DNA of 64,000 nt from Gautieria morchelliformis. Its lineage: Eukaryota > Basidiomycota > Agaricomycetes > Gomphales > Gomphaceae. Below, piece by piece: positions 431 to 26,240 of the stretch. A program made the position numbers and the translations under genes. Under the pieces are notes generated by a model. That model made no database searches. It saw only the letters and a program-made list of their open reading frames with translations, and had not been told where the DNA came from. How positions within the stretch are numbered: the stretch's first letter is position 1; each line of letters begins with the position of its first letter. The stretch covers positions 1 to 64,000 of the forward strand of contig WHVA01000143.1 in assembly GCA_015179125.1 (NCBI GenBank), in the 5' to 3' direction.

Positions 431-555
431 ATTGATATTAAGATCAGTTGCTCTGCTGTCCCTCTGGTAAATATTGTCATTTCATTTCACTTTGTTGGCC
501 TATTTTAAATAGAGGTCAATAGATTCCCCTGAGTTTGCCTTGGTCTGCTTGCAAT

Positions 556-612
556 GTAAGTCTGATATTGACAGCTTTATTCTCTCTCTACTCTTATGCC
601 TGCATTTATCAG
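556..612 (+). promoter_or_regulatory. 57-nt intron splitting the start codon of the H1 replication protein
   Basis: The donor GTAAGT follows GCAAT, and the acceptor TTTATCAG precedes GGATCCATCTACTCC. Splicing joins AAT to G and creates ATG GAT CCA TCT ACT CCA (MDPSTP). This matches MEPSTP made by the equivalent intron of H2, which is also 57 nt long. Without splicing the same position reads ATG TAA. The match in place, phase and length between two diverged copies is the main support. Confidence 0.75.
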
Positions 613-789
613 GGATCCATCTACTCCAGAGAGTAACTGTCAGTGGGAGCGTGCACAGGCGAGGGAGGCACAGTGGGTAATGACACCACACTGATCGGAG
701 AGCGCATATCAGAGCTCGGGACCAGTCACCCCCCCCACCCCCACCTTTTGCGATCCCTCATCCTCCTCCAGGAAGCAATGTTGCCGATC

Positions 790-1570
790 CTTTTCAACAA
801 CCTGTTGCTGGGCCGCCACACCCTCCCACACTTGCACCATCCTCACGTCAACAGCCACCACGCCCCCCCATGCTTGCACCATCATCACATCAACAACCTG
901 TTGCTGGGCCATCACACCCTCCCATGCTTGCACCATCATCATGTCAACAACCTGTTGCTGGGCTGTCATGCCCTCCCACACTTGCACCATCGTCACATCA
1001 ACAACCTGTTGCTGGGCCATCACGCCCTCCCACGCTTGCACATCGTCACGTCAACAACCTGTTGCTGGGCCATCACGCCCTCGCATGATTGCACCATCAT
1101 CATGTCAACAACCTGTTGCTGGGCCATCACGCCCTCCCACGCTTGCACATCATCACATCAACAACCTGTTGCTGGGCCGTCACACCCTCCCATGCTTGCA
1201 CCATCATCACGTCAACAACCTGTTGCTGGGCTGTCATGCCCTCCCACACTTGCACCATCGTCATGTCAACAACCTGTTGCTGGGCCATCACGCCCTCCCA
1301 CGCTTGCACATCGTCACGTCAACAACCTGTTGCTGGGCCATCACGCCCTCGCATGATTGCACCATCATCATGTCAACAACCTGTTGCTGGGCCATCACGC
1401 CCTCCCACGCTTGCACATCATCACATCAACAACCTGTTGCTGGGCCGTCACACCCTCCCATGCTTGCACCATCATCACGTCAACAACCTGTTGCTGGGCT
1501 GTCATGCCCTCCCACACTTGCACCACCGTCACGTCAACAACCTGTTGCTGGGCCATCACATCCTCCTGAT
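790..1570 (+). repeat. 54-bp minisatellite with a 268-bp higher-order repeat
   Basis: About 14 units of 53-54 bp; the CCTGTTGCTGGG core recurs at 897, 951, 1005 and so on. In the ancestral frame each unit encodes 18 residues of the type QQPVAGPSxPPxLAPSS. H2 has a single related segment (PPVAGPSNAIPPDLSP) at the corresponding place, so the array is a local expansion of Helitron coding sequence. Five-unit blocks repeat at 268 bp: CATGATTGCACC occurs at 1084 and 1352. The 53-bp units show that frame was no longer under constraint. Confidence 0.9.
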
Positions 1571-4375
1571 CCCAGTCTCAGAGTGCAGGTGGCAGCCCTC
1601 CTTGCTCAGAAAGCAGCTCTCCCTCCATTACAGCCTGTGAGAAGAAATCAGCCAGACCCTATACAGCCAGCACCTGTAGTAGGTTCTTCATTTATTGCAG
1701 ATTTGTGTGCTCAGGCAGATCAGCAGGCTGCTATATTGCAGCAATTTGAAAGATGTAGATGGGGGGGTAATCCTCCTGTTGTGGGTTCTGCAGGAGTGGC
1801 AGCATTGCAGGCCCAGGCTAATGCAATCAGGTAAGAGGAAGATGCAATTATCAGACTTCCATTGGTACCACCTCATCCACCACCACCTCCCAATCCTCAG
1901 CCACTCCCTGCACCTCCTCAGCCACCCCCTGCACCTCAGCTGCCTCCTCCACTCCCCATACCTCAGCAACATCCTCAGCGACCTTGGCGCGGTGCTCAGC
2001 GACCTCCTCCTATTACACTAGGTCACTCTCAACTAATTGAGGCAGATGTGCAGCCTTATGATCTGGGTCCCATGGAAGTGGCCTGTCCTAAATGTGGAGC
2101 ATTACACTGGTTTGCAGAGCGTCTGCAAAGCTCTACAAATGCGGAGGACCATTTTGGTGATTGCTGTACGAAAGGAAAGGTGCAGCTTCCAAAGCTGCCA
2201 GTGCCCCCTCAGCCTTTGAGATGGCTCTTAGAAGGCCAAGACCCTGAGGCAAAAGAGTTTTGCCAGAATATCAGGCAGTATAATGCTGCATTGGCATTCA
2301 CTTCCTTGGGGGCCAACTTTGATAAAGATTTGCTTCGGGCGGGTCGTGGTCCATATGTCCTCAAGTTACAGGGTGAACTGGAGACTTGCAGGAAATGCTC
2401 TTGGTCTGCAATCATCATGTCGCCATATATAAACAAGCAGCTGAGAGGCTCAGAGATCAGGGCCAGAATGGTGAGATCCAGGCAAGGCTCACATACAGGG
2501 AATACAGGGATCCTAGGAGGTATAATATCCCTACTGCAGATGAGATTGCAGTGGTTCTTCCTGGAGATGGCATCAATCCTGAACCTATGGATATTATTGT
2601 CCAGCTCAAAGGTGGACCTTTCAGAAGGGTATTGGATACCAATCCAAACTATGCCTCTCTTCACTATGTCTTGCTCTTTCCCAGGGCAGATTTGGGATGG
2701 AAACCAGGTATTCCTTATCGTGAGCCAGAGGCCAACCCAAACAGACGGGGGCAGGTGACCCAAATTCAGTACCATTCATATCGTCTCTTCCAAAGGAGAG
2801 AAGAACCTACAACACTCCTGCGTGCTGGCAAATTATTCCAGCAGTACATTGTAGACTGTTGGGCCTCTGTGGAGCAAAGCAGGCTGAGGTGGATCATGAC
2901 AAATCAACACACTCTGCATGCTGAGGTGTATAACCAGATGGTGGATGCGTTTAATCGCAATAACAATGGCAGTGATGAAAACAGCTTGGGCACAAAATCC
3001 ATTCTGCCTGCCACATTTCAAGGAGGGACACAGGACATGCAGCAAAACCTGCAGAACTCTCTGGCCATTTCAAGGAAGTTTGGTGTGGCCGATCTCTTTA
3101 TTACCATGACTGCCAATCCCAAGTGGCAGGAGATATTGGATGCATTGTTACCTGGACAAACACCTCAGGACAGACCTGACTTGGTGTCACGGGTGTTCCA
3201 GCTCAAAAAGAAATACCTCATCGACTTGATTGTCAAGGAAAAGATTTTTGGGCAAACCGTTGCTCGCGTCCACACCATTGAATTCCAGAAAAGGGGACTC
3301 CCACACATGCATATTCTTATCTGGTTTGCAAGAGATTCCAAGATCAGGCATCCACATGAGGTGGATTCTATGATTTCAGCAGAGTTCCCTGATCCAGAGA
3401 CACATCCCATCCTCTACCGCTTGGTCTGTGAGCTGATGACACATAGTCGGAAAAGCTGGGTAACAGCCTTGAGAGGCCAGAGATTGTGGCCGGAGAAATG
3501 GGCAGACGGAAATGCGGGACACACATCCTGCATGGAAAATGGCAATTGCAACAAAAACCTCCCAAAGCCCTTCTGTGAGGAAACCAGTCTGAACGAGGAT
3601 GGATATCCTCGATATCGTCATCGCAATGATGGAAGGCAGCACAATGTCAGGGGCAACATGCTGGACAACAGATGGGTTGTTCCATACTCTGCTCTGCTTT
3701 TGCTCAAATGCCTGTGTCACATCAACGCTGAACTTGCCATCAATGTGAGGTGTATCAAGTATATCCACAACTATCTCTACAAGGGCCATGATCGGACAAC
3801 GATTGAGTTAGGTCTCAGCAAGGATGAAATTAAGCAGTACCTGGACGCTCGCTATGTCAGTGCTCATGAGGCCTATTGGAGGTTGCTGGAGCGGGAAATT
3901 CACACCCAGGTGCCTGCAGTCATTGCACTGCCAGTCCATGAAAAGGACCACCACATGATCATCTTTGGTCCCAATGAGGATGTGGACAACATCCTCATTA
4001 GGGCTGAGGTGAAAAAGACACCGCTCATGGCTTACTTTGAGGCCAATGATATCTACCCTGAAGCATGTGATCTGCTCTATGTGGAGTTTCGCAGTTTACC
4101 TGGCAATCAGAGGAAAAGGTATGGACACCACGCCAAGGAGGTTATAGCATTGGTCGCCTTCACTTTGCAAGCCCCAAATCAGGAGAGAGATTTTTTGTGC
4201 GCACTCTCCTCACAGTGGTCAAGGGGGCTAGATCCTTTGAGGAGCTTAGGTCAGTGGATGGCATACACTATGCTACTTACAAGGAGGCCTGTTGTGCAAG
4301 GGGACTTCTGGATGACGATCAGGAGCTGAGGTTGTGTCTCCAGGAAGCCAGTGCCATGAAAACAGGTGCTCAGCT

Positions 4376-4880
4376 CTTTTGGATTAAGATGTTAATTAGT
4401 GCCTTTCAATGAATAGAATCTATTGCTCAGTTACTGGAACCACTATGTTCGCCCCTCTTCTGTGGGCTGACTAAGCCTTTCGAGGCACGTCCAGCACTGA
4501 TGAATGAGAGTCACGTGACCGTGTCGACAGAAGAATGGTGTCGATCCAAGGGATAACGAAATCAAAAGCGTTCGCTTTTAAGATAGTATAGTGTAAACAG
4601 TGATAGTAGACCCTCGACGAATATTTGGAATAAACTATCAAGATCTGAGTTCTGTAGCTATCAAACAAGACTACAGTAATTTCAGGAGGCAGAATAATTG
4701 ATTCTGGATGATTTCGTTCATACATTTGTACTAGCTATTTATACTATGTTGATAGTAACTACTAGTGTTCAAGATATTAGACAGATGGGTCGAAAAGCTG
4801 TTTGTAGCTAAGGAATGACTAATTTATAGTCATAAAGTCATGGGGTGATGGGGATGGTGTCAGGATTGTCTGGGCTTTGG
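4376..4880. mobile_element. LTR-like repeat, copy 1 (about 0.5 kb)
   Basis: A dispersed repeat also found at 41479-42050 and about 61990-62543. Shared landmarks are TGTTAAYTAGTGCC near the left end, CTGACTAAGC, GTCACGTGAC, TATTTATACTAT and GGGGTGATGGGGA. The third copy lies where a minus-strand Gypsy integrase should be followed by its 3' LTR, so a solo or partial Gypsy LTR is the best reading. Here it sits exactly between the truncated Helitron and the broken NLR gene. It is an old, diverged copy; exact ends and target duplication are unresolved. Confidence 0.55.
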
Positions 4881-7590
4881 AAATCATGGTACAACGTGTT
4901 GAAAGCGTTGTACAAAGTGTTGAAATCACTGGACTACATGTTCTGAATGTTGTCGGGGAAATCGGCGAGTTTTCTGATTTTGTGGCCTTTGCCCAGGCTA
5001 ATACACTTTGCAACCAGCCGGGGAAGTTCAACTTAATGACATGCCCTATGCAAATGGAGCTGGTTTCGATCCTAATAAAGGATGTCTACCGGGTACTCGG
5101 GAGAAGGTTATTGTGGAGATATGGGAGTGGGTCCACCAGGATAGTGACCATCCCCCCCGGATATTTTTATTGAATGACGTTGCGGGTGCCGGCAAGTCTG
5201 CAATAGCTCATGAGGTTGCTAAATGATTTGACATGCTCAAACATCTTGGATCGTCCTATTGTTTTGACCATGCTCGCCAGGCAGAATGCTTCCCGAGTAA
5301 TCTCTTTAGCACAATTGCTCACAGTCTGGCTGATCTGGATCCTGAACACAAGGCATCTTTATTGGAAGTGGTTCGTGACAATCCAGAACTTCGGACCACA
5401 TTTGTGCCTAGCAAGCAGTTCAAGAGGTTCATTCTCAATCCTGCCAAGGACTTAACCACCGTCGGACCGACGGTGATCGTCATTGATGCATTAGATGAGA
5501 GCGGAGATCTGGAGTCTCGCCGGGCTCTCTTGTCTGTTCTTGGCAACGAAGCTGCGGAACTGCCGTCCAATCTCCGTGTTCTAATCACTTCCTGCACCGA
5601 AGATGACATCCTGGAGGCCCTTCTGGGGAAGACGCATGTCCTTTCCAGGTCCTTAAAAGATATTGACCCGAACCCCGCCCAAGCCGTCACACACTTTGTG
5701 GAAGACCAATTATGTGACATTAAGGGCCTCGAGAAGAAATGGCCGAACAAAGATTGGTGTCGATTATTAGTCGAGAAATCCGAAGGTCACTTTCAATGGG
5801 CATCCACTGCTTGGTGTTTTGTCAAAGGAGATGGGAAGCATGGTCACAATCCTGTTAAGCAACTGGAGGAGGTTTTAGACAAGAACGTCTGTGGGATGGA
5901 TAACCTGTATCTCGGTATCCTCACACAGATATTCGGGGATAGCAGTGACTTGATGGACGATGTCAAGGATCGCTTTCGCTTAGTGATGGGCTGCATGTTG
6001 ACTGCCAAAGAACCCCTCTCAATGTCTGCCCTGCAGAAGCTATGCAACGAAGATGAGTCGGGTACTGAGGTTGATGATATAGTTGGACCCATGGGCGCTC
6101 TTTTGAGCCTTCCTACTCAAGAATGTGACCCGATCAGTCTGCTGCACATGCCGTTTTGTGACTTCTTGACAGATTGCAACCGGAGTGGATCATATTACAT
6201 CCACACATCTTTACACCATGACGGCCTTACGCGCTCATCCTTGCGCGTGATGAAGGATGAACTTTGTTTCAACATTTGTCAGCTTGAAACTTCACATCTG
6301 CGCAACGACAACATTGTCGACTTGGAGACACCGACCAAGAACAATATATCCTCCCAGCTTTCCTACTCTTGCCGTTTTTGGGCGGACCACATTCGTGCCA
6401 CCACCTTTACGCCGGAATTTGGTGCAAAGGCCATGGAGTTTTTCGAGACTAATCTACTCTACTGGCTAGAAGTTTTGAGTTTGATCAAGAAGTTATCCAA
6501 TGCATCAGCAGCGCTCTCGTCAATAATGGAGTGCCCGAGTTGTTATGAGCTCCGACGTGAGTCTAATGAACTTCAGGATAATGACATTAGGGCATTCGTA
6601 GCGGATACCTGCAATTTTTTACATGCATTTGGGAGTGTAATCTCTCAGAGTGCTCTCCATCTCTATTTGTCGGCACTCCCATTTTCACCTGAAAGGTCCA
6701 AACTATGTGAGACTTACCTACCACGATTTCCACGACTACTCCGCATCAAGACCAGGAAAGCGACGACGTGGCTACCTATTCAAACTGTTCTGGTAGGCCA
6801 CACCCACTGGGTCACGTCGGTGGTGTTCTCGCATGACGGCAAGCGCATCGTCTCCAGGTCTTGTGACAACACAATCCATGTGTGGAATGCAGACACTGGG
6901 GAGGTCATTTCAGCACCACTCGAAGGCCACACTGACTCCGTCACGTCGGTCGCGTTCTCACACGACGGCAAGCGCATCGTCTCCGGGTCTCATGACAAGA
7001 CGATCCGTGTGTGGGATGCAGACACCGGGGAGGTCATTTCAGCACCATTTGAAGGCCACACCAACTACGTCACGTCGGTGGCGTTCTCGCATGACAGCAT
7101 GCGCATCATCTCCAGGTCTGATGACAACACGATCCGTGTGTGGAATGCTGACACCGGGGAGGTCATTTTAGCACCATTAGAAGGCCACACCAACTACGTC
7201 ACGTCGGTGACATTGTTGCACGACGGCAAGCGCATTGTCTCCGGGTCTTATGACAAGACCATCCATGTGTGGAATGCAGACACCGGGGAGGTCATTTCAG
7301 CACCATTCGACGGCCACACCGCCACCGTCTTGTCGGTGGCATTCTCGCATGACGGCAAGTGCATTGTCTCCAGGTCTGTTGACAAGACAATCCGTGTGTG
7401 GAATGCAGACACCGGGGAGGTCATTTCAGAACCGTTCGAAGGCCACACCGCTGCCATCTTGTCGGTGGTGTTCTCGCACAACGGCCCGCGCATCATCTCC
7501 GGGTCTCTTGACAAGACAATCCATGTGTGGAATGCGGAAGCCCCCGCCATGGGATTGGGACCCCTTGTATGTCAAGAAGGTAGTCAGTAG
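4881..7590 (+). pseudogene. NLR1: NACHT-WD40 receptor-like gene, broken paralogue of NLR2
   Basis: STAND-type NTPase of the fungal NOD-like receptor class. The 5' exons (C2 region) are missing; homology to NLR2 begins at 4881, straight after the LTR-like repeat. Walker A DVAGAGKSAIAHEV is encoded near 5176. It is followed by TGA at 5224-5226, where NLR2 has CGA (33311-33313). After that stop the frame is open for 785 codons (5233-7590). Walker B VIVIDALDESGD lies near 5475, then helical linkers, then six 43-residue WD repeats from about 6799 to 7560. Near 6525 the copy has lost the donor of the intron that NLR2 has at 34628, and the former intron is translated in frame. The open part starts after the P-loop, so nucleotide binding would be lost even if it were expressed. 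Confidence 0.85.
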
Positions 7591-7840
7591 CTGTCACCTT
7601 GATTTGTCTGAACATGGCGGAATATACTGATATTCTTTGAACAGCCAAGTGGACTGGGTTTTGAAATGACTCACAGCTACAAAATGGCTGGTTACTCAAC
7701 TTCCCCTCAAAACCTTTATTCTGGGTTCCACCCTGGTCTCAGTTAGGTTTGTGGCGGCCGGCAAATACTGCTGTTATTGCGAAGGGGTCCACAAAACTTG
7801 ATCTCAGCCAATTTGAGCATGGGACTTCGTGGAAATGCAC
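7591..7840 (+). repeat. Duplicated 3' flank of NLR1
   Basis: Sequence after the stop codon matches the 3' flank of NLR2 (36472-36720) with scattered substitutions, starting CTGTCACCTTGATTTGTC. The paralogues therefore arose by a duplication that reached about 250 bp beyond the coding region. Confidence 0.85.
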
Positions 7841-10488
7841 AAAGGCCATGTGAGTTTCCCAGGGCAGGCACTCATTGACACATGGATCTTGCATCCCCTG
7901 CTATCATAGTGGTTTGAGTTCCCATAGCTTACACACAGCTACCCTCCAATAGTCTGTCTTGGACACTCTGTCCTGCCAGATCAGGAAAAGCATTAGGACA
8001 CTAAAATGGTAGATAGCTAGGCATAATTATGTGTGAACTATATACTATTCTCTGTGGATAGATACTGTCCGCACTGTACATGACACAGTATATAGGGTAT
8101 ATGCCACTTATGTAGGGCTGTCCAATTAAGATTAAATTAAATTTTGGGCTGTATTTTAATATAATTCTAATGATTATGGAGGTGTTGAAACCATAATTTA
8201 ATTTCACCCTTAATTTAATATAATGTAACCTTAATATAATCTTATGTAATAACAACTTCAGCTTCAAAGTACTGGACATTTTTTTGACATCTTTTGGAAC
8301 ATAGATAATCCTGACTTTGCTAAAATTAATGACAGCAGCTCCTTAAATATGGTTTCCTTTACTATTTTATTTATGTCTGTATATGTCACAAAATAGATAT
8401 TGATACATGTCCCTGAGTTTTCTAAAAGTTAATGATAAATAATAGCCTCTGCTTGCTTCACTTTGGGGCCCTTGGGGATATGCTACACATGGGTGACACA
8501 TTACAAACAAATTGTTGTAAGTCACGGCACGGCGCACATGCTACTGTGTACATATAGAGTGAGGGGTCAAGGGAAGGAAGGAGAAATATCTTCAAGCGCC
8601 AATTAAGGGCTGAAGTGAGTCTGGGGCTGATACGACGAGAACTGTGGCTTCAATACAGCCAGCTACAATAGCACAAATGGAGTTTCTTACTGCCTAATAT
8701 TCTGTTTCCTAGCTATTTAACTAGCTTGGAACGAAGCTATGCTATGAAAGATGCTGGTGGAGCAAGCAGGTGCCACCGGTGCATGATATGTGCACTGGTG
8801 CTGGGCTATGTACCTATCTGATCATTTAGGTACTAGTGCCTTGGAGCTTTCTATACTATTGTGGAGTGACTACATATATTCAGGAACGATGGAGCACCTC
8901 CTGCGCTCCATCTCGGATCAGTGCCTTGAGCAGCCCCGGAAACGGGCTCAGGGTTAAAGGGGCCAGCAAGATGCATGGTGCGGGCTTGATCCCCTGCCTC
9001 CTCCCCCGCACCCACCTCGGGGTGCCCCATGGGGTATACGGAGCAGGCGCCAGACGGCAGCACAGGTGCAGAGCGGAGCCGTTTTAGGCTGGGACTGCTG
9101 ACCATTGTGGGGAGGGCCCAGTCGAAATGACGGAGGCGGACCCAGGAGGCGCGGTGGTGATGGAGCGGTCGGTGAAGGAGAGACAGGGACGGGGTCTTTA
9201 AAAGTGGGTTCGGTGCCATTTTGTGGAACCAGCAGCGCTGTGGCAGTCTTTCTTTCGTTTTTTGGCGCTGATCCCGGGCTCGTTGTGTGAACGGTGCTGA
9301 GGGCATTGCTACTGTCCTGACCCCCCCGCAGAGCGCTTTTATACCCCACAAAGAGGAGCATGTGCTGCTGTCTGACATTGTCTCAGTCACAAGCGAATCT
9401 TTGGTATCGACGGTTAATGAGAATTTGCTGCGGTCGCTCTAGGATTAAATGACACCACCCATAGCCTTGCTTGAGCAGAGAGGGCCCAGCTACCTTGTTG
9501 GGCGGGGGTATCTAAGCAGAGAGCTGGATGGGTATGCAGGTTTGGGTGCGGGGACAGCGGGTGAGGAGGTGCAGAGCTTGATAAAGGCAATCTGCTCAGG
9601 GCAGGGATGGGTAATATGGGAGAGGTGGTAGGGGCGTGAGCGTCGTCAGCGGAAGGATGGGCTCAACGGAATGAGGCGGGCTGGAAGAGGCGGGGCTGGC
9701 AGAGGTGAGGCTGGGAACGTGTGTTGGCGGGGTCGTGAGCGACGAGACCAGCTGACGGAGAGTGGGCTGGTCGGTTGGCTTCGGTAACTCAACGGTAGAT
9801 TGCATTGTCCTGCCTTTCAAGGATGATTCTGTCTTGGACGTAGGTGTCGAGGCATTTTCTGGTTTTCCCCATCGTTCCTTCAGTCAATGCTTAGCCTACG
9901 TTGACCAGAACGGACCATGGACGAGGGTCAATTCAAGAATATGCAGGAGGGTGGAACACTTCAAACATAAGGCATTCGCCTCACCGAAGGCCTCCCTCCA
10001 AGCATGTGTCGAATGCAAGCTGTTTACGCTCAACACTAACCACGCCACGGCCGCATACCTCAGACTCATGCCGGGTGGGGTAGGATGAGTGTGGGCTGAA
10101 TTGGCTCAGGGTCGACTCATTGACCAGAGGTTTGTCCTCCTTCATTGTTCGTGCGTGGCATTGTCTTACCGTTCCATCGTCCCATGTCGTTATCTCATCC
10201 TTCCATCTCATTCTCATCCTGTTGTCCTCTCATCTCATTGTCCCACCCATTCTCTCTTGTATCAGAGTCCATGCAGGTACGAGCATGGGCGCTCGTCCAT
10301 CCGAGTCGTCCTGCTGCTCATTGCCTCATATTGTCCTAACCCCGTGTCGTTTCATTCTCTCACCGTGGCCTGCATCACATCCTCTAGCTCCACCGACACC
10401 CAGAAGCACCATTTAACTCCCCTCAACAACAAGCTGGGGCCTAGACTTTCATGCTGACAAAAGACAGGCGGACGTGAAGCAGCCGTTA
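7841..10488. other. No recognisable gene
   Basis: Short frames only. The 8.85-9.4 kb part is GC-richer with overlapping frames on both strands and no domain I recognise. A 108-codon plus-strand frame at 9762-10088 has moderate complexity and could be a remnant exon, but I cannot name it. Confidence 0.5.
8127..8233. repeat. AT-rich imperfect inverted repeat
   Basis: The left half TAAGATTAAATTAAATTTTG pairs imperfectly with the right half ending TTAATATAATGTAACCTTA. The inner arms are ATTATGG and CCATAAT around an 11-nt loop (AGGTGTTGAAA). It may be a palindromic MITE remnant. Confidence 0.45.
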
Positions 10489-10785
10489 CACCTGTTTGCA
10501 GTACGCAAGGCGCGCGTCAGGTTTGCCTCCGTTTTAGCGCGCAAGACTCGAACAACGATTTCTCGCTAGTTTCTGCTCGGATTGCCTTGAGATTTTGTAC
10601 CTGAACATAAGTTGACCATAGCTAGGGCACAGAAGTATGAAATCCAAGTAAAACAAACTTTTGAGTTTTGGATTTTTGGCCACTAGGCTGGGTGGTCAAA
10701 CACCCTTCTGTGAGCATCCAAAGGTTTGCATTACAATGAATAACTACATATTCTTCATGTACCTCTAGATAGAATAATGGATAGT
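10489..10785 (+). repeat. Left inverted arm of a mariner-type element
   Basis: About 300 bp starting CACCTGTTTGCAGTACG, directly preceded by TA at 10487-10488. Its reverse complement, with scattered differences, is at 17725-18025. It runs up to the start of the mariner transposase gene, as expected for a terminal inverted repeat plus 5' flank. Confidence 0.8.
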
Positions 10786-10866
10786 CATTGTTGTCGATAC
10801 TTAGCTAAGACTTTGAAGTCGAAGTCTTTGTTTCGGGAACTTCCGGAAACACTGTACGTCATCCGT

Positions 10867-12071: not shown

Positions 12072-12726
12072 GACTGGAGGATATGCTACTGTGGGAAGCA
12101 TGAGTCTGTAACTGCAGTGTACTTGATTTTTGTTGTAGCTCACGTTACCTGAGCAGTATATGACGAGTTTTGGTGTCATTAGTGTTTCACATCCTGTGAG
12201 GGATATGATCGTTCATATCCAAACTCCTCGAAACCTTGCATTTGCTATCCAACATAGTACATGGATATTCAAGAAACCTCAAATAACAGTATACAGTAAG
12301 CCATCAATCAAATTCCTCAAGGGGGACTACAGCGTTGTTAAATGGTTCATAGCACTCTGGAGAGCTACATGTTTTACTGCCTTCTGAGCTTTCAGCAATG
12401 CTATTGAGTCCATCATGTCCTCCTTGTCCCCAATTCTTCTTTGTTTGGAAAAGGCGACTGCAATTGGTGAGTGTTAGTGACGTTCATCTTGCAGAAATGG
12501 CATACCTATTCCACCAGTGCAGCAGTTCCTGTACCTCTTCCTCAAAATCCGGGTCTTCTAAAAACTTCACCAGTGCCAGAAAAACTGGGTGTTATCGAAT
12601 GAACAGCCGATATTTTTATTCGTCTCCTCCGAGGATAACGCGAATCGGGTCTGGGTGAGGTAGAGACCAGATCAATGGTAACCAGCGATTGTCAGGCCTT
12701 TTCTCACCTGTGTTGTGACATACGCC
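12072..12726. other. No recognisable gene
   Basis: Sequence between the transposase stop and the syntaxin remnant. Short frames without recognised domains, and no mariner terminus resembling CACCTGTTTGCAG. Confidence 0.5.
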
Positions 12727-13480
12727 AGAGATCGGCGAGTAACCTGTAGCATGTCAGCCAGTCATAGACAGACAGGCATCGACTCGTAGAAGCCAAGGAC
12801 GTACCCGACTTCCATGTCCTTCTCGACATTCATGGCTGCCATCTGGATAGTCTCGATGGTTTCATCTTGCTGCTCAACGAGAATCCTCATCTAATAGGGA
12901 TAAGATCACAGCACCCTGCGAAGGTCTGCTAAGGACTTACATCATTGAAGAGCTGCGCCAGCTCGCCCAGAGTACGCTCAATTCATTTAATGTCTTCGTG
13001 GCGCTCTTGGACCTCACGATAGGCCGCGCGCGACTCGCTGTAGCGATCGGAAGATTGAAGCTATTACGCAGGATGAGATAAACGAAGCACAAAAGGAATG
13101 AACCTTACAGCTTGAGCGAAGATCTGTTCGCCCTGGTCGTTGTTGACTACCACCTTGACTTCATTGGGGGTAGCATCAGGCTTGACTAGACAGAAATCAG
13201 CTTGAGGGCATCGACAGGTGACTATTGACTACCAATCTTGAATTGCTGCTCCATGCGTTGTTTGTACTTAGCCCGGTACTGCTGTTCCACCTGTTGATAG
13301 TTTTGAATGGCCTCGACGAACTTCTGCTTCACCGAGCCCATCTGCATTGTCCATCTACGGTGAAGCGAATATATTTGGTCTATCACAGGTGGTACGCACC
13401 TGTTGCTTGTGGATCTGTCCATCCCTTCCGCTGCCACCCTTCCTGTGAAGGTTCTTGATGCGAACCTTAAGCTCACTCAC
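12727..13480 (-). pseudogene. Syntaxin (plasma-membrane t-SNARE, Sso1-like) remnant
   Basis: Minus-strand exons encode the middle of a syntaxin: SELKVRIKNLHRKGGSG near 13470, then KQKFVEAIQNYQQVEQQYR, VKPDATPNEVKVVVNNDQG near 13180, EQIFAQA, SRAAYREVQERHEDIK, IERTLGELAQLFND and MRILVEQQDETIETIQMAAM near 12890, separated by short GT-AG introns. This is the Habc end, linker and first half of the SNARE helix. The rest of the SNARE helix and the C-terminal membrane anchor are absent, as is most of the N-terminus. A TGA at 12983-12985 replaces the Arg of the usual K-R-I-E stretch, consistent with CGA to TGA. It cannot make a working SNARE. Confidence 0.8.
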
Positions 13481-13499
13481 CTCTTTGAACCAGAGTCTG

Positions 13500-14700
13500 A
13501 CGAGTTCGAAGGCGTATCAGACAGCGAAGATGACGAGGATACGAGGAGGATGATGAGGATGAGGATGGAGATGGTGGCGAAGCATATAGCTGTGTGAGCT
13601 ACCACACCGTGATGGTGCTAACATGATATCGATGAGAGAGCTGGAATGGATACTTCAAGCTTGCCAGCCTGCCTGCACATTATAGGGCTCTGAGCGTGTA
13701 TCGGCTTACAAATTCCACAAGCGCTTATACGGTAGTAGCATCCGGTGCTCATATCCTTCATCACAGAATACCTATGCGCCCCGGGCTCACCTCCAATCAC
13801 TCCCACTCCTCCACCCAAAGACGTAGCGCCCTCTGTAAAACACCGTACGTCCAAAGAGTCACTGATATTCTTGGTAGTATCATGCTGACATTCTTTGGTT
13901 ACTGAATAGCTCCCGGAGATCGTAGTCACATACCAGAGTCGTCTAAGCCCGCGTATAGCGTCCTCTCAGAGGAGCTGAGATGTTTAAGGCAAATTTCCCC
14001 CGTACGCACGATTATTATGTTAGTTGCCCATTCCTGACCTGTTGATTTAGCCACAGCAAAAGTGTATGGTTGATGACACTGAATGACGACTGGATGCCCT
14101 TTTCGATGCTCTCAACTGTGAGACGCTCTCAAAACCCGTTGTTGAGCAGTTGGTGAATTTGACAAACGGTACGATATTATCTTGGGGTAACTTTGATGAT
14201 CTTCAATGGAGTTTTCTTTCGCAGCGTAGAAATCGAGATGCGGCCATGGCTTCGAGTCCGTGTATCACTCTGCATTGCCTCCGACCATTTCACAGACGCG
14301 ATTTTACTTGCAGTCAAAGGAGGCATGGAGCTCTTGCAAAATACGCAGGCCTATTTCGAATGCCAGACGACTACTCTACCATACCTTCGTCTATATCAGT
14401 CGATCATGACCAACGACCTCACGGACATCATTCAAAACGCAGACCTGCGCGAATGGCAGGAAATTTTCGTTGGCATTGGTGGCAAAAGCTCAAATTATTT
14501 TTAAATTTTATTATTGGCTTTTACAATATTGTTCTGAGTAGGATTAAAAATATTGAAAAAAAATAATTTTTTTTAACGACTCAAGCTCCATATAACGAAG
14601 AACATTATATTTAGACTGATGTTCGTCAACAATGCATGCGCTAAATCTATAGCAATGACTCGTGTTCTACTGATCCTCATAATGATCCATGACCGTCTCC
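13500..14700. other. No recognised gene; one orphan frame
   Basis: Contains an acidic GAGGATGAG-type low-complexity stretch near 13520-13580. A 103-codon plus-strand frame at 14193-14504 (with segments such as LLQNTQAYFECQTTTLPYLR and LREWQEIFVG) reads like ordinary protein, but I do not recognise it. It may be an exon of a captured or broken host gene. Confidence 0.4.
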
Positions 14701-14703
14701 CAC

Positions 14704-16346
14704 CTATTCCCTGACAAGATTCCTAATAGCTTTCCTGACAGCCCGTGTGATAAAGTTAGCATCACCCCATGACAATCCAATGTTTGCCATGATAGTATCT
14801 ACCGCTATGTCCTTTAGTTCGTTTAGAAAATACACCTGCTTCGTTTCAAATCTTTCTTTGAGGGAATCGATGTTTTGGCCTCTGGCTTCGGGCCAGGTAC
14901 GAACCTCTTCAAGAAAGTCATTGATGCTAGGAAAATCAATGTTCGCAGGTGTTGTAGGAATGGGCTCACTCTTTCGAGAGTTGGGTGGAGTGGCGGGATG
15001 GATGGGATGAATGTTTTGAGCAAATGCTCGATAGTCGTATTGTGGGAAGAAGCCAGGAAACTGCATGACGGGAAAAGAGCCTTGAACGCCGAGTGGGGCA
15101 TGACCGGGTATGTTCTGCATCGGCACCTCTTCAGACTTTTCTTTTGGAACCACATTTTCTTCTTTACGGTAATGGAAGTCTCGGAAATGTGAATTGTTTG
15201 GTGGAGTTTTCAGAGTGACACCATGCATCTCAGAAACCTATTTGTGCATTATTAGCAGTGAGTAGCATGGATATAGTGTATGTACATACCAAGGCCACCA
15301 CCCAGGATTGCAGTTGGTTCCAGGACAAATGTGCATGCTCTCCATTCTTGGTTAGCTTGCAAACTTTTGCAATGCAAGTGCTCTTGCCACAGTTAGAATA
15401 TTCCGCCTTCAACGCCTCCATGTAATCCTTTTCCTGTTTTGTCAACTGGCCACGCTCTTTGATGTCAGACCCTGAATTGGCATCAGAATCAGTGTTCAAA
15501 TCGTGGATCCGAGCTTCTCTCTTCTTTCTGCCCCTGCCACCATTATTTGCCACCGTTTTTCCTTTTTTGCCAGAAAGTGCGTGCCGAAGCGACGCCATGT
15601 ACTATAATACTACAATATCAGATACGGCTACCATGGTGATCCATATGATCACTTACATCTTCATCCAGGACAATTTCTACTTCTACCCCACTCGCATCAC
15701 CCTTTTTCTTCTTTACCTGAGCGCTCTTCACATCATCCTTGAGAGTGGCCCAGTCATCTTCCTTGGCAAGCTTCGAGAGATGCTTGTCGCGCACTCCTTT
15801 GAGGCGGTAAGCTAGCTGGGGCATTTTTTTCACATTTTTGTAGCACCCAATGGCTTTGAAAACATGCTCCTCCACGTCATTGAAGTGCGCACTAGCTGGG
15901 ATTTTGACACATTCAATAAATCCTTCCGGTTCGGTACAATCCGGAACACGCAAGACAATGTCTAGATAAAGCATGAGCATATATATAATAAAAATATTAA
16001 AATACATACTAGGCTCATCCTTTACCTGTTTGTGAACGACATCTACTGGCTCCTCAGATTCTGAGCCGTCCGGTAGCTCATTGGACTCAGCCTCGGATAC
16101 GGTTTCCGGTCAAAACTCTTCTTGATCTGAGGCCGGTTCCATCATGTCAGCGAATTGGACCTTTTTCGCTGCCTGACACTTCGGTCGAGAAGTGCCGGTT
16201 TCATCAGCTGGCAGATCATTTTGTCAGTTCTTGATGAAATTCCATTATTATAACATACTGACCAGGTAATGTTCTTTCCAATGATTCATTGACCATATTA
16301 TCTCTACCAGACTTAGAAGGCTTCCTTTTGTTCTTACCATTCCCCA
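14704..16346 (-). pseudogene. Multi-exon gene of a basidiomycete family of unknown function, probably broken
   Basis: Reading leftwards: MGNGKNKRKPSKSGRDN from 16346, an acidic exon (SEAESNELPDGSESEEPVD), KIPASAHFNDVEEHVFKAIG near 15890, basic MASLRHALSGKKGKTV near 15598, LTKQEKDYMEALKAEYSNCG, LSWNQLQSWVVALV, then a last exon ending WGDANFITRAVRKAIRNLV near 14710. GT-AG introns separate the exons. Similar proteins with an H-x-D-V-E-x-H-x-F-K-A-x-G segment recur in agaricomycete genomes without known role; that is from memory. An in-frame TGA at 16110-16112 in the acidic exon suggests a pseudogene unless that stretch is spliced out. Confidence 0.55.
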
Positions 16347-17724
16347 TCGTTTCAGCGGCTACAGCAAGTCAAATCGGGTCGGATAACACCGACTCATTTT
16401 TACGTGTGAGTAACGTACTTCACGCTCGCTTGTTCCTTCTACTCTGACATTATATCTTAGCGCACCTGCAGACACAGTGGAGGTAAGTTTTCCTTCTTTG
16501 AATCTACATTCATGATGCTGACTGGATCTGTGCTTTGTTGCATTGTGCTCTCTGGAGTGCTTGTCGCAGGCTTGTTTCTATCTTTTTTTTCAAGTAAAAT
16601 AGCAAGTCCTGTGCAAAATAATGGAAGGCCCCCTGCGCCAGTCAGAGCGTTTGGGCCAGCTTAGGTCTATTGGCAATTCCCGGCCCAAAGCTAAGGTGCG
16701 CATTCTTTACGATGTGACACGCATTGCCAGCAATCATATTATAATCTTAGATTTCACCTATACCTGTTTGCCCGCATTATGATCACCAAGATCATCATTC
16801 GCAAGGATACAATCATCCTGAAGAATTGTCTAATACATCATATGGTCTTCCATGCCGACCCCTTAATTCCCGCGACACCCGCCTGGGCGGTCGTTCCTCT
16901 GCGACCGCACTGGGCGCCGCCGCCTCTTCCTCCTCTCCTGCGCGGGGATGTCCCTCTTCTTCACACTGCAGACCATGTGCAGTGCGCAGTTCACAATCAC
17001 CGGCTCGACGGTGGCGCACGCGAGCTCGCGCTGGGGAGGACGGCATCGACGCAGCAGAGCGCGCGGCGTGCGGCCTGACGCTGACGCGGAGGAGGCGCAC
17101 GTGGGGCCGACGGTGAGCGTGCTGAGGCGTGGCAGGAGGCGCGCGGCGAGGGCGGGCCAGTGCGCGGGGGGCACGTTGACAAGGGCGAGGCGGGGCGCGA
17201 GCACGAGGACGTGGTGCACGGCGGCAAGGCACGCGGGGGGCCACGCGAAGGTGTCGAAGGGTGCGGCGGAGGTGTCGAAGGGCGCGGCGGAGGCGGCGTC
17301 GTCCAGGGCGAGGGCGGGACAGCCCGGGGCGCCGATGGGCACTCTAACAAAAGGTGAGTTGCTTCTAAGGCACACTGTTACGATCGATATACTGCGTGGT
17401 CCAGGCCCACTCGGGGAATATTTGTGCATTTGATCCACGAGTTTACCCGGGCCGCGAGGATTGAAGACCTCCCAGCGAGCCAGTCGAGCGGTCGTAGTAC
17501 GAGTACGAGTACTGCCTAGAGTAAGGAGTATTATATATGTGACATCTGGTAGCGCGGAGCGCATTACTAGTTACTGGTGTAGTGTCACCTTAAACCCGGT
17601 ATTTATCATGCAGGAGAGGCACATTCGAGCATGAGGCGGCGGATGTGCGTCTGCTATCCTTGGTAGTAGGTCGAACAGTCTTCTCTTGGGGCTTATGGAC
17701 GTGGCGGTAGCGGGTCAACAACTA
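16347..17724. other. GC-rich island, coding status unclear
   Basis: From about 16863 to 17564 the sequence is far richer in G and C than its surroundings and has overlapping long frames on both strands. The minus-strand frame (233 codons) includes APRLALVNVPPAHWPALAAR and LLPRLSTLTVGPTCA, reminiscent of leucine-rich or F-box proteins. GC-rich DNA opens many frames by chance, so I make no call. A short start MEGPLRQSERLGQLRSIG at 16621 is followed by a possible donor. Nothing else was recognised. Confidence 0.35.
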
Positions 17725-18025
17725 GCCATTATTCTATCTAGACTGGTACCTATGAAGAATATGTAGTTATTTATTACAGTGATGCAAACCTTTGGATACT
17801 CACAAAAGGGTGTTTGACCACCCAGCCTAGTGGCCAAAAATGCAAAAACTCAAAAGTTTGTCTTACTTGGATTTCATACATCTGTGCCCTAGCTATGATC
17901 AACATATGTTCATGTACAAAATCTCAAGGCAATCCGAGCAGAAGCTAGTGAGAAATCCTTGTTCGAGTTTTGCGCGCTAAAATGGAGTCAAATTTGACGC
18001 GCGCCTTACGTACTGCAAACAGGTG
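17725..18025 (-). repeat. Right inverted arm of a mariner-type element
   Basis: Reverse complement of the left arm (10489-10785) with scattered differences. Its outer end reads CGTACTGCAAACAGGTG followed by TA at 18026-18027. That outer end falls inside the coding sequence of the neighbouring DDE transposase remnant. Confidence 0.8.
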
Positions 18026-18029
18026 TAAT

Positions 18030-19316
18030 GAACATGGGCCAGAGCCACTGAACCAGCTCACTGAACAAATAAGCACGCATTGGATAAAACTAGCAAACTA
18101 CGCACTATTGGTGTGCGTTATTGCTATCATAGTTATACGACTCTGCACCCTTCCTCCATATCTCCTTGATATTATCACCCCATTGAAGGCGGACACGAAG
18201 CCACCCTCTTTCTATTGTTGTATTGTGGATACTCTTGAGGAATTGATGAGCCGAGAGCTCTGCCACCGGCAGGTCGGGTGAGAATGCCTCACTGGTAAAT
18301 GTATTGATTAAGACAGATAAATATAATCTGTTTAGTGACATACCAAAGTGCATTGGCAAAGCCATACATCTTTGTAGTCTCCGAACCACAATCAGTGGTT
18401 GACTGAATTGGCATCCCTGTATATAGATGATTCTTGTCATTTATTCAACGAATAACAAACATACCTCCAAGTTCCTCAATGAGACTAAGATAGAGGTACG
18501 CAATAGCTTCCCCCAGGCGATTATTTGGTACGACCCACAGCCCTAGCCACTTACCTGACCATACGTCATGTAACGCCCAGATGGGAAAGCCGATTGCAGT
18601 TAGCTTGTCATGACCATCACCGCTCCATTCATAGTGAGGACCTAGGACAACGAGTGGGACCCGATGCACCTTCTTTGCTGTAGGATCTCGGTATGAGAAC
18701 CCTTCGGGATCTTGCAGGCGCATCTCCATTTCTACATAGTCTCTGGTCAAAGATTGAGATGGTCATCTAATATAAAGCAGAAATAGAACTGACTGTGTTA
18801 AGTGAATGCCAGTTTGCCTGGAAATGTCCTCTTTGATGAGGCGTGGGCCGTGCCACCTCGTCGGATCCTTCACCATTTGGTCCATAACAAGCTGTCGCTT
18901 GACAACCTCTGGTATCTCAATGGTAGTAAGTTTACTTCCTTTGAGTCCCATCTTGGAACGTCATCTCGCCACCGAGGTTGGACTAAAGCACGTGCATGTG
19001 CGCAGAGTCACTTCTAAAGTAAAGTACAAGTGAATAGCGGACAAACGAACCTGATGGTAATGTCATGTTCCACCTTGAGCAATTTGCTCAGAGTTATGCG
19101 GTTAGTTATACCACACCGATGTTATTCTGTGAGGAAGGCTTGAAGGTGAGGGTCGTTGGCCAACGCTAGGCTCGTAACAAATGTTATCGTGACCTACAGT
19201 TCTAAGTGGAGAAACTTACGGCAGCTTTTGTGCTGGTTTTTACCAGTGGGGTTGCGATTGTGCAAGCCTGAACTACTGTCGAGGACAGGCTCGTGGCGGT
19301 CATCCTCGTCGTACAT
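18030..19316 (-). pseudogene. Integrase-core DDE transposase-like gene, copy A (IS3EU-like?)
   Basis: Minus-strand spliced gene starting MYDEDDRHEPVLD near 19316. It continues with HNRNPTGKNQ, ITLSKLLKVEHDITIR, VKRQLVMDQMVKDPTRWHGP, then the catalytic core DGHDKLTAIGFPIW, DVWSGKWLGLWVVPNNR, LYLSLIEELGG, TTDCGSETTKMYGFANAL and RLQWGDNIKEIWRKG. It ends with SELVQWLWPMFI, where the mariner arm begins. Two catalytic Asp positions (DGHD, TTDCG) are visible. The family resembles the rve-fold integrase-core proteins common in basidiomycetes; IS3EU is my tentative placement. The frame is broken near 18105 and the C-terminus is cut off by the mariner arm. Confidence 0.65.
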
Positions 19317-19621
19317 CGCGTCAACAAGCACGTGATAAGGAGTACTATCAATAGTATAAAGATGGGTGTGTGGGTGGTTGTGGGGGTGTTTGCGTTTTGC
19401 GTTTTACGTAATCCTGACTAAGACGCAAACAGACCACGCATACTGACTAAGATGCTGCGCACGACGCGCGTTCTCTCCCTCTGCCATCATCCTCCCACCG
19501 TCCTCCCAGCGTGCTTCTTTCACATCTATTTCTGTCTCAAGTATGTTCTCACCTCCTGGATCAATTGACTGACCCTGATGAGGCATGCAGAAGCTTTTAA
19601 TTCACTGGTGTGTCTCTCATT

Positions 19622-20200
19622 TAATTTTCGCTTTTTTAGCTCATTTTTGGCCCCTTTTTAAGCCAGATTACACCTCTCAGCTCCTCTTCACTCTACCTGT
19701 GGGTCTCTGCCTGCATTCTGGTGAGCATCCTGGCCCAATTTTCGCTTTTTTGGATGGTTTGCTCATGCCAACAGCTCTGCAGTGCCTTGGGTATGTTTTT
19801 CTCTTTTATTTTCGCTTTTTAAGGCTTATTTTGGCCTATCATATGCCAGATCTACCCTCTCAGCCTCATATCTCTTAGGTATGATCTCATGCTCAGAGCA
19901 ATTTCCTTTTCTGTGTTAATTTTCGCTTTTTTGCCCCATTTTCCCCCCTTTTCAGGCCAGATTACACCTCTCACCTCCTCTTCACTCTACCTGTGGGTGT
20001 CTGTCTGCATTCTGGTGAGCATCCTGCCCTTATTTTCGCTTTTTTGGGTGGTTTGCTCATGCTAGCAGCTCTGCAGTGCCTTGGGTATGTTTTTTCTCTT
20101 TTGATTTTGCTTTTTAAAGTTTATTTGGCTTTTTTTCAAGCTTACTTAGGTATGTTCCTATTCTCATAGCAATTTTCCTTTTTGGCACCAATTTTGGGTT
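19622..20200 (+). repeat. Tandem leader repeat of H2, 294-bp period, 2 copies
   Basis: AGATTACACCTCTCA recurs at 19665 and 19959, and the surrounding blocks match: ATTCTGGTGAGCATCCTG, TTTGCTCATGC, CAGCTCTGCAGTGCCTTGGG. Both units start with the block TTTTCGCTTTTTT that is also seen in the H1 leader. Confidence 0.85.
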
Positions 20201-20384
20201 TGACCTTAACTGATCAGTTTGCTATTTCTTTCGGTCCCAGCTATTCAGTATGGTTTTGCCATTTGTATGTTGTATTTTCAAGCTAATGTTGACTTGGCCA
20301 TTAGTTTCCCTCCTTGGTTTTTGCTGGGCTTTGTGCCGTGCTAATCTCTCTGTCCTGCCTAGAGTGATTGAGGTGGTTGGTTGG

Positions 20385-20715
20385 TTGGATTGTGCACTGG
20401 AAGCTTGCATTGCAGTTTGATTCTGGCCAGAGTTACAACTCCAGTGTGGTCTGTGGACTAGGATTGGTTTGGTGGTGCACATTGGATTTAGGCGGATTGA
20501 CCACCTCACTGGTATCTGTGGTGGATTTGTTTGGTTGGGTGGTCGGTTGGTTGGATTGTGCACTGGGAGCTTGCATTGCAGTTTGATTCTGGCCAGAGTT
20601 CTAACTCTGTTAGCCAGTGTGGTCTGTGAACTGGGATTGGTTTGGTGGCACACATTGGGTTTAGACGGTTTAGGTGGACATTGACTGCCTCCCTGGTATC
20701 CCCTATTGTTGGTCG
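20385..20715 (+). repeat. 166-bp tandem repeat, 2 copies, before the H2 start
   Basis: GATTGTGCACTGG begins at 20388 and 20554. Shared content includes AGCTTGCATTGCAGTTTGAT, TCTGGCCAGAGTT and GGGATTGGTTTGGTGG. It lies just upstream of the intron-split start codon and is probably 5' untranslated or promoter sequence. Confidence 0.8.
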
Positions 20716-20736
20716 TGAGCTACAGTCATTGTGAAA

Positions 20737-23700
20737 ATGTGAGTATCCTTTATTTATATATATATGGCTTGATTTGAAACTGACTGTAATTCAAGGGAGC
20801 CCTCTACACCAGAGCGTGATAGGCAGGAGGAGCGTGCTCTGGAGCGTCAGCAGCGGTTGCCAATGACGTCCCCTTCTGTGCGTCGTCGGGATAGGGCTCT
20901 CGCTGCAGCTCAAGAACGTCTTCGAAATCCTGACCCTCCACCTCCTCAGCCATTTCCTCGACCTCTACTCCCTCAGAACAATGCAATTCCTTGGCCTCCT
21001 GTGGCTGGACCTTCAAATGCCATTCCACCTGATCTAAGTCCTCGGGATGCTGTACGTGCCATACAGGAACAGTTAGCTGATATGCCTCTGGCACCTGTGC
21101 GTCAGAGACATCCCCTGTTAGCACCGCCACCTGTTCCTGTAGGCTCTGCAGCAGTAGCGGCATTGCAGGCCCAGGCTGCTAATGCCCAGATAGCACCTCC
21201 TCCTCCTGTCCCTGTAGGCTCTGCAGCGGTAGCTGCGTTGCGGGCCCAGGCTGCTAATATCAATCCTAGACCTCTGGCACAACAGAGACAGGGACGATGG
21301 CGTGCATGACACCCTGAACCTCTCCCAGATCAAAGGCCACTCCAGCAGCAGCCTGCACCACAACAACTGGTGCCTCTGCCTCCAGGGCCCCCTGTGCCTC
21401 CACAGCCTCTGCATCCACCTGCTCCTCCTCAGCCCCCTCCACTTCCACTGCCTCCACCAATGCCTTTAAGAAACCTTCCACTAGCACGTCGCCCTTTGAT
21501 TGAACAACAGATTGCACCTCATGACCTTGGTGCTATGGATAACAAATGCCCAAAATGTAAAGCATGGCATTGGAAGGCAGAGCGTCTGACCAAGTCTACT
21601 ATTGCCGAGCCCAAATTTGGTATATGTTGTTCAAAGGGCCAGATACACCTTGAATTGTTGATGGAACCTCCAGAACCATTAAAGACTCTTTTGGCCAGCC
21701 AAGACAGGCGTGGCAAACAGTTTAGGGAAAAGATTCGGAACTATAATGCTGCACTGGCATTTGTCTCTGTGGGAGTGAACATAGATCACAAGGTCGTGAA
21801 TAGACCTGGGCCATATGTCTTCAAAATTCAGGGAGGCCTCTATCATATTCATGGCGCTCTTCTTCCTGCTGAGGGTCAGGATAGGAAACCCAGCTATGCG
21901 CAGCTCTACTTTTATGATCCAGCAGAGGCTTTGCGGCGTAGGGAGGTCAATAACAGATTTGATCCTTTGGATTCAGATGTTTTAAGTGACCTCCAGGAAA
22001 TGATGCAGGCTCACAATCCATTGGTTCCCATCTATCAGCAGGCGATGGAAAGGCTTAGGAACCAGCCAGATAGGTTGAATGTGGAGGCCAGACTCACCTA
22101 TAGAGCACATACAGACCAGAGAAGATATAATATTCCTACAGCGGATGAGATTGCCATTGTGCTCCCTGGAGAAGGTGTGCCTGGAGGCACTAGAGACATT
22201 GTCATTCAGCTTAGAGGTGGAGAACTGCAACGAATTCAGGCTGAGCATGCATTGTATGCGCCACTACACTATGTCCTTCTCTTTCCCAGAGGTGAATCAG
22301 GCTGGGATTGGGACATTCCACGGATAGGCCAAGCTCTTCCACAACAAGGCCAGGAGGAGGAGGGGGAGGGGGAGGACCCTTCAAGTGACAGGCGTGTGAC
22401 CATGTCAAAATACTATCGTTATCGTCTTTTTCCGAGGGAGGGTGAAGCTGAAACTCTCTTCCTGGCTGGCAAGCTCTTTCAGCAATACATTGTGGATGCT
22501 TGGGCAGCGACTGAACAGCAGAAGCTAAATTGGATCAAATACCATCAACATGAGCTGCGGGCTGAGGTCTACAATCAGATGATTGATACATTTGGACCTG
22601 AGGACAATCAGCCCAATCCAGCTAACTTGGGAAAAAAGGTCATCTTGCCTGCTACATTTACTGGGAGCGCCAGGGATATGAATGAGAATTTTCAAAATTC
22701 AATGGCGATCACTAGGAAGCATGGTCCAGCAGATATCTTTGTGACAATGACAGCAAACCCCCAGTGGAAGGAAATCAAAGATGCTCTCAAGCCAGGCCAG
22801 ACTCCCAGTGATCGTCCTGACTTGGTTGCAAGGGTTTTTCATCTCAAGAAGGAGCAATTGATCAAACGTATCATGAAGGATGGTATCCTTGGTCGCGCAG
22901 TCGCACGTGTCCATGTGATCGAATTCCAGAAGCGGGGGCTCCCTCATATGCACCTTCTTATATGGTTTAAAGAGGAGGATAAGATCAGGACACCGGAAGC
23001 TGTGGATGCTTTGGTTTGGGCTGTCTTTCCTGATCAGCAAGAGCATCCAAGGCTCTACAAATTAGTTTGTGATCTAATGACTCATGGCCCCTGTGGACAA
23101 GCGCGTCCTCGGGCTTCTTGCATGACAGAGGGCAAGTGTTCTAAACATTTCCCAAAGGAATTTCGTGAGGTGACATCTGTCACTGAAGATGGCTATCCAC
23201 AGTATCGCCGTCCTAATGATGGCAGACAGCATAATGTCAGAGGCAACATCATGGACAACCGCGACGTGGTTCCCTATTGTCCCACCCTCCTCTTGGAATT
23301 TGAATGCCATATTAATGTGGAACCCACTTTCAATGTGCGCTCTATCAAGTACATTCACAAGTATATGTACAAGGGGCCCGACAGGACCACAATGGCCATT
23401 AATAAGGAGAGGGATGAGGTTAAACAGTACCTCGATGCACGCTATGTCAGCTCACATGAAGGTGCTTGGAGACTGCTGGAATATAAAATGCATGTTCAGG
23501 TCCCTGCTGTTATGGCACTTCCAGTCCATTTGCCAGGCCAGCACAATGTGATATTTGATCCTCATATGGATCCAGGCATGGTTTTGCAAAGGGCAGATGG
23601 TGCTAAGACCATGCTCATGGCCTATTTTGAAGCCAATCACAGATATCCTGAGGCATGTGAATGGCTCTATGTGGAATTTCCTGAGCACTATGTCTGGGAG

Positions 23701-26210: not shown

Positions 26211-26240
26211 CCCGGTGCGAAGCACGGGTCTATTGGCTAG
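26211..26240 (+). other. Helitron 3' terminus: hairpin plus CTAG
   Basis: CCCGGTGC-GAA-GCACGGG forms a 7-bp stem with one bulged G, then TCTATTGG and CTAG (26237-26240), with T as the next base. This is the standard fungal and plant Helitron terminator, and the insertion is before T as expected. Confidence 0.93.

What the first reader, a model, noticed from the sequence alone, without database searches (positions are those of the whole stretch)
554..20797. Helitron start codons split by a conserved 57-nt intron, with a start-stop codon pair when unspliced
In H1 (556-612) and H2 (20739-20795) a 57-nt GT-AG intron separates AT from G of the Rep start codon. Splicing gives MDPSTP or MEPSTP. Unspliced RNA gives ATG-TAA or ATG-TGA, because AT followed by GTAAG or GTGAG always makes ATG-stop. 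The copies are otherwise diverged, with different leader repeats and many indels, yet intron phase, place and length agree. This suggests splice-gated translation of the transposase: only properly spliced transcripts would express it, and read-through or mis-initiated RNA would be silent. I know of no description of this in Helitrons, but I could not search.
Basis: partly seen in the sequence, partly recalled or inferred. Interest (0 to 1): 0.85.

Follow-up and report, generated by a model that had tools for sequence, protein, structure and literature searches.

The report
Helitron start codon split by intron
Two old, decayed copies of a fungal rolling-circle transposon share what looks like a small intron cutting the start codon of the transposase gene in two; the intron is probably real, but the idea that it is a strict on-off switch is not borne out by the sequence.

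Summary
Both Helitron copies carry a 57-nt GT-AG intron with strong donors (GTAAGT, GTGAGT) between AT and G of the start codon, and protein similarity begins at residue 2. The copies are so diverged that synonymous sites look saturated and the intron interiors look unrelated, yet donor, acceptor, phase and length agree. The arrangement AT|GTRAG...AG|G occurs at 8 of 127,780 positions of the window, two of them these. H2 has no ATG in the 440 nt before the split one. An inherited, functional start-codon intron is the best reading.

The strict gate is not supported. H1's retained intron contains an in-frame ATG (596) that reads into Rep, and both copies have an in-frame ATG at residue 24. Unspliced RNA would be attenuated or given another N-terminus, not necessarily silent. 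The ATG-stop follows automatically from AT plus GTRAG. Neither copy is intact.

Start-codon introns are known in fungal genes, and introns in fungal Helitron RepHel genes are known from RNA-seq. I found no report of the combination in the listings seen. No RNA and no close relative were available.

The parts
554..555 (+). H1: A and T of the split start codon
   Evidence: sequence
556..612 (+). H1: 57-nt intron GTAAGT...TATCAG; possible weak branch site CTTAT
   Evidence: branch site judged by eye
596..598 (+). H1: ATG inside the intron, in frame with exon 2, open into MPAFIRDPSTPES...
613..690 (+). H1: start of exon 2 (G of ATG, then DPSTPES...); frame stops after residue 27
680..682 (+). H1: in-frame ATG at residue 24
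1835..4376 (+). H1: decayed Rep region (Helitron_like_N, PF14214, in the 2377-4326 frame)
20289..20736 (+). H2: leader stretch with no ATG on the sense strand
20737..20738 (+). H2: A and T of the split start codon
   Evidence: sequence
20739..20795 (+). H2: 57-nt intron GTGAGT...TTCAAG; branch-like CTGAC near the 3' end
   Evidence: branch site judged by eye
20796..21309 (+). H2: exon 2, Pro-rich Rep N-terminus MEPSTPER..., up to the TGA at codon 172
20863..20865 (+). H2: in-frame ATG at residue 24
21310..24201 (+). H2: Rep, open frame of 963 aa (Helitron_like_N, PF14214)
24144..26112 (+). H2: PIF1-like helicase in two overlapping frames up to about 25.5 kb, then an insert of about 425 nt and the C-terminal part
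   Evidence: insert and end by eye
26211..26240 (+). H2: Helitron 3' end, hairpin CCCGGTGCGAAGCACGGG then TCTATTGGCTAG, followed by T

Best explanation
A Helitron lineage in this fungus carries a spliceosomal intron in its Rep-helicase gene, placed between AT and G of the start codon. Shown from sequence: splice signals, phase and length are kept in two copies whose synonymous sites and intron interiors no longer resemble each other. Inferred: splicing builds AUGG behind an ATG-poor leader, and ribosomes start there. If the intron is retained, that AUG becomes an AUG-stop, so the normal N-terminus is not made; output is lowered or moved to a later in-frame AUG rather than switched off. The intron is most likely kept as an ordinary promoter-proximal intron, not as a dedicated gate.
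For: Exact match to the described anatomy. The arrangement is rare: 8 of 127,780 positions including these two. Rep is 59% identical over 557 aligned codons, dN 0.34 by NG86, dS not computable by NG86 and no value from YN00, four-fold sites identical in 48 of 125, while intron interiors match at 12 of 48 sites and align no better than shuffles (P 0.47); kept ends with a randomised interior is what selection on splicing predicts. The 440 nt before H2's split ATG hold 0 ATG against a shuffled mean of 9.1, none of 1,000 shuffles as low, with 7 CAT for comparison; H1 is weaker (4 against 8.0, P 0.059; over 200 nt 1 against 4.2, P 0.03). RNA-seq shows introns in RepHel genes of Pleurotus HELPO1.1 and HELPO1.2 (PMC4289320, passages).
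Against: No RNA evidence. Only two copies, both decayed. The 100 nt upstream of the two sites do not align better than shuffles (P 0.78), so exon 1 homology rests on position and splice sites. H1's branch site is weak by eye. Part of H2's leader is duplicated (by eye), so its ATG count is not fully independent. If transcription starts further upstream, other ATGs come first (295 and 377 in H1, 20286 and earlier in H2). In H1 a plain start at ATG596 is possible.
Confidence: 0.72

Rival explanations
1. Splice-gated transposase: the split start codon and the AUG-stop are selected so that only spliced RNA yields transposase and unspliced RNA is silent.
For: In H2 the AUG-stop follows 448 nt without ATG and no usable in-frame ATG lies between it and PSTPE; AUGUAA is reported to stall ribosomes and trigger mRNA decay in Arabidopsis NIP5;1 (PMC11915504, passages).
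Against: H1's retained intron supplies an in-frame AUG into Rep (596), and both copies have an in-frame AUG at residue 24. AUG-stop arises automatically from AT plus GTRAG. Most coding introns would block full-length protein when retained.
Confidence: 0.13
2. No intron: Rep starts at a plain downstream ATG (residue 24, or ATG596 in H1) and the GT-AG pattern is coincidence.
For: In-frame ATG at residue 24 in both copies; fungal RepHel genes are often described as intronless (PMC4289320, passage); two distant Helitron-like genes have a plain first ATG.
Against: Residues 2-25 (all but the last two upstream of that ATG) are similar between the copies (50%, E 0.002) and would be untranslated; the arrangement occurs at about 6e-5 per position.
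Confidence: 0.12
3. The intron is real but the true start lies further upstream through another intron, and the AT|G is incidental.
For: The leader is long and its transcription start is unknown.
Against: H2 lacks any ATG for 448 nt upstream; the spliced frame meets stops just upstream in both copies (open only from 533 in H1 and 20719 in H2).
Confidence: 0.03

Closest known systems
Start-codon introns of Yarrowia lipolytica (PMC13309789, passages read)
   Same: Fungal introns whose donor lies directly after A, T or G of the start codon: 42 of 2421 introns; [quoted passage not shown]
   Different: Host genes, with RNA evidence; the class also counts donors after the whole ATG; longer introns (median 196 nt over all introns); not transposons.
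Ribosomal protein L19 gene of Nosema ceranae (PMC2685015, passages read)
   Same: Start codon interrupted by a predicted intron (figure legend).
   Different: Microsporidian host gene.
Pleurotus ostreatus Helitrons HELPO1/HELPO2 (PMC4289320, passages read)
   Same: Basidiomycete Helitrons with a RepHel protein of about 1400 aa; RNA-seq introns in HELPO1.1 and HELPO1.2.
   Different: The one passage on introns gives no positions; 'start codon' occurs 0 times in the main text. Whether these introns split the ATG is unknown to me.
AUG-stop (AUGUAA) element of Arabidopsis NIP5;1 (PMC11915504, passages read)
   Same: Unspliced H1 RNA would show AUGUAA, H2 AUGUGA, upstream of the main frame.
   Different: There it lies in the 5' UTR and answers boron; here it appears only if the intron is kept, and no function was tested.

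Membership tests
Helitron (rolling-circle transposon) | Rep domain with HUH motif and tyrosines | tested here: met
   PF14214 at E 1.1e-61 (H2) and 2.8e-58 (H1); GLPHMH and YLDARYVS shared in the alignment, (motif names recalled)
Helitron (rolling-circle transposon) | PIF1-like helicase joined to Rep | tested here: met
   H2 only: PF05970 at E 2.2e-76 and PF21530 at E 4.3e-14, now in other frames than Rep. H1 is cut off before the helicase.
Helitron (rolling-circle transposon) | 3' hairpin followed by CTRR and T | tested here: met
   H2 only: hairpin and CTAG|T at 26211-26240. Not found for truncated H1.
Helitron (rolling-circle transposon) | 5' TC end inserted between A and T | tested here: inconclusive
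   the 5' region was printed but the 5' ends were not located; H1 may begin before the window
Start-codon intron | Donor inside the ATG with matching acceptor | tested here: met
Start-codon intron | Removed from RNA | not testable with these tools
   no RNA data held
AUG-stop regulatory element | AUG followed at once by a stop, upstream of the main frame | tested here: met
   in unspliced RNA only: ATG-TAA at 554, ATG-TGA at 20737
AUG-stop regulatory element | Stalls ribosomes or triggers decay | not testable with these tools
   needs experiment

The most novel reading that the evidence does not exclude
In this Helitron lineage the split start codon is a self-limiting device: intron-retained transposase RNA shows ribosomes an AUG-stop, which stalls them and marks the RNA for decay or small-RNA silencing, so that splicing efficiency sets transposition rate, with a minor truncated or alternative-N-terminus Rep made from later AUGs.
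Probability: 0.1. Interest if true: 0.7.

Novelty: new variant of a known kind. Interest (0 to 1): 0.36.

Why it matters
If RNA confirms it, this is an old intron position held at the start codon of a rolling-circle transposase. It would give a natural test of whether transposons tie translation to splicing, and it warns that gene finders may miss or mis-start such proteins. As it stands it is a sound gene-structure point, not a new mechanism.

Tried and rejected
Viral contigs: the H2 Rep protein, two H1-H2 alignments and two DNA motifs were scanned. The three protein scans confirmed no relative; one motif found nothing; the other gave L006-L009, none of which matched the H1/H2 pieces by tblastn at E 0.1. 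Prokaryote genome contigs: one scan confirmed nothing, one motif scan gave L001, a 7.3-kb contig in a Bacteroidetes MAG that is probably a eukaryotic contaminant (inference). A PF14214 search of its bin found 4 places, one of them L001 itself; among 395 genomes of its class only that bin matched. L001 (Rep 35.5% identical to H1, 38.4% to H2) has a plain ATG at 3363 of the minus strand, one codon after a stop (the coordinate printed is wrong because my script joined several records of one file). L012 has an open frame whose first Met is plain, but the frame is open for 21 codons before it, so its start is not fixed. Upstream introns were not excluded for either. They say only that plain starts may exist in distant Helitrons.

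Considered and rejected: the roughly 425-nt insert in H2's helicase as a second intron (no AG at the needed place; ATGACTGT/ATGACTAT flank it; by eye); ATGTAAGT at 58801(-) as another split start (it lies by a decayed DDE_Tnp_4 transposase and I saw no sign of a start). The equal 57-nt length and the ATG-stop were rejected as separate evidence. I did not test systematically for further introns; H1's stretch 690-1835 is mostly tandem repeat.

Listed of found: 25 of 92, 20 of 20, 13 of 13, none found, 10 of 11, 4 of 4, 15 of 52, 2 of 3, 12 of 12, 3 of 3. No title or abstract opening listed named a Helitron with a split start codon; unlisted papers and most full texts were not seen. Five papers were opened by passages only (PMC2685015, PMC4289320, PMC13309789, PMC10182648, PMC11915504); PMC10182648 proved irrelevant.

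Full report
Observation. The two sites are as described. H1 reads CAAT|GTAAGT...TATCAG|GGATCC with intron 556-612, H2 reads AAAT|GTGAGT...TTCAAG|GGAGCC with intron 20739-20795, both 57 nt; the spliced frames begin MDPSTPES and MEPSTPER. Similarity between the copies starts at residue 2: H1 residues 2-25 match 20797-20868 at 50%, E 0.002. The arrangement AT|GTRAG...AG|G with 45-75 nt between is found at 8 of 127,780 positions over both strands, including these two; allowing the donor after A, AT or ATG gives 21.

What the copies are. Both are Helitron Rep-helicase genes. H2 has Helitron_like_N, PIF1 and the PIF1 2B domain, and a 3' hairpin with CTAG|T. H1 has Helitron_like_N; its similarity to H2 ends at 4376, before the helicase, and a repeat with three copies in the window begins at 4412. 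Neither is intact. A further helicase piece lies at 63715-63524 on the minus strand; its 5' end would be outside the window.

Why the intron is probably real. Over 557 aligned Rep codons the copies are 59% identical in protein; identity by codon position is 69, 76 and 41%; dN is 0.34 by NG86, which could not give dS, and YN00 gave no value; shared four-fold sites are identical in 48 of 125. So the lineages separated long ago while Rep stayed under selection (inference). Over the same time the intron interior became unrelated (12 of 48 sites; global alignment no better than shuffles, P 0.47), and so did the 100 nt upstream (P 0.78), yet GTRAGT, AG, phase, place and length agree. In H2 the 440 nt before the split ATG hold no ATG (shuffled mean 9.1, none of 1,000 shuffles as low; 7 CAT), though part of that leader is duplicated (by eye); H1 shows a weaker deficit (4 against 8.0, P 0.059 for 440 nt; 1 against 4.2, P 0.03 for 200 nt). 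Each intron holds one further ATG (596; 20764), which fits its removal. In H2 I saw no second intron: Rep is open for 963 aa, residues 69-949 of it align to L001 in one piece, the later frame changes are overlapping frames, and the helicase insert lacks intron ends (by eye). H1 was not tested for this.

Why the strict gate fails. In unspliced H1 RNA the AUGs from 377 on are 377 (AUG-UGA), 554 (AUG-UAA), 596 (in frame, reading MPAFIRDPSTPES...) and 680 (residue 24). In unspliced H2 RNA from 20289 on they are 20737 (AUG-UGA), 20764 (AUG-GCU-UGA) and 20863 (residue 24, 148 codons open before the TGA). So H1 RNA that keeps its intron can start just after the AUG-stop and read into Rep with a slightly different N-terminus, and both copies offer residue 24. 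One-codon frames often permit leaky scanning or reinitiation (recalled). Earlier AUGs (295 in H1, 20286 and before in H2) would matter if transcription starts further upstream, which is unknown. The sequence supports attenuation or a changed N-terminus. Splicing also replaces U by G at +4, giving GCAAUGG and AAAAUGG, a usual strong context (recalled).

Limits of the comparison. No genome is held for the window and the reachable collections are viral or prokaryotic. The one relative with a readable Rep 5' end, L001, has a plain first ATG in another N-terminal sequence; L012 also shows a plain first ATG but is more distant (the H1 and H2 Rep queries match its shorter cut L005 only over 35 and 51 residues, E 0.007 and 0.003) and its start is not fixed. 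This neither confirms nor refutes conservation in close relatives. The host as an agaricomycete is an inference, not tested; four hand-placed P450 introns of 44-55 nt would fit a basidiomycete.

Against what is known. In Yarrowia lipolytica 42 of 2421 introns have the donor right after A, T or G of the start codon (PMC13309789, passages). The Nosema ceranae L19 gene has a start codon interrupted by a predicted intron (PMC2685015, passages). Fungal RepHel genes are often described as intronless, but RNA-seq showed introns in HELPO1.1 and HELPO1.2 (PMC4289320, passages). AUG-stop sequences can stall ribosomes and cause decay and transcriptional downregulation in Arabidopsis NIP5;1 (PMC11915504, passages). 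I found no report of a split start codon in a Helitron among the papers listed by the ten searches, of which searches listed only 25 of 92 and 15 of 52. It is therefore filed as a new variant of a known kind, of moderate interest.

Noticed in passing
window 63524-63715, minus strand: Fragment of a third Helitron helicase, 62.5% identical to H2 over 64 residues; its 5' end would lie beyond the window.
   Followed up: no
window 25490-25920: Insert of about 425 nt with TTCTGTCACA-type repeats inside the H2 helicase, flanked by ATGACTGT / ATGACTAT, so perhaps a small DNA transposon with an 8-bp target duplication (by eye).
   Followed up: partly
window 5227-7590 and 33086-36471: Two WD40-repeat genes with 129-nt units, mostly 83-90% alike and less at the ends of the arrays; NPHP3_N (NTPase) was seen in the second. 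They resemble fast-evolving fungal NLR-like genes (recalled).
   Followed up: no
window 4412-4824, 41514-41925, 62009-62420: Three-copy repeat; the first copy begins 36 nt after the last H1-H2 similarity.
   Followed up: no
window 794-1542: Tandem array with a 53/54-nt period in H1's N-terminal region; the mixed lengths shift the reading frame.
   Followed up: no
window 377-379: A second ATG-TGA pair in H1's leader repeat, in frame with exon 2.
   Followed up: no
L001 (VBAU01000223.1): Helitron Rep-helicase on a contig filed under a Bacteroidetes MAG, with a second helicase C-terminus and a further open frame upstream; probably a eukaryotic contaminant of the bin, which holds 4 Helitron_like_N places.
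   Followed up: partly
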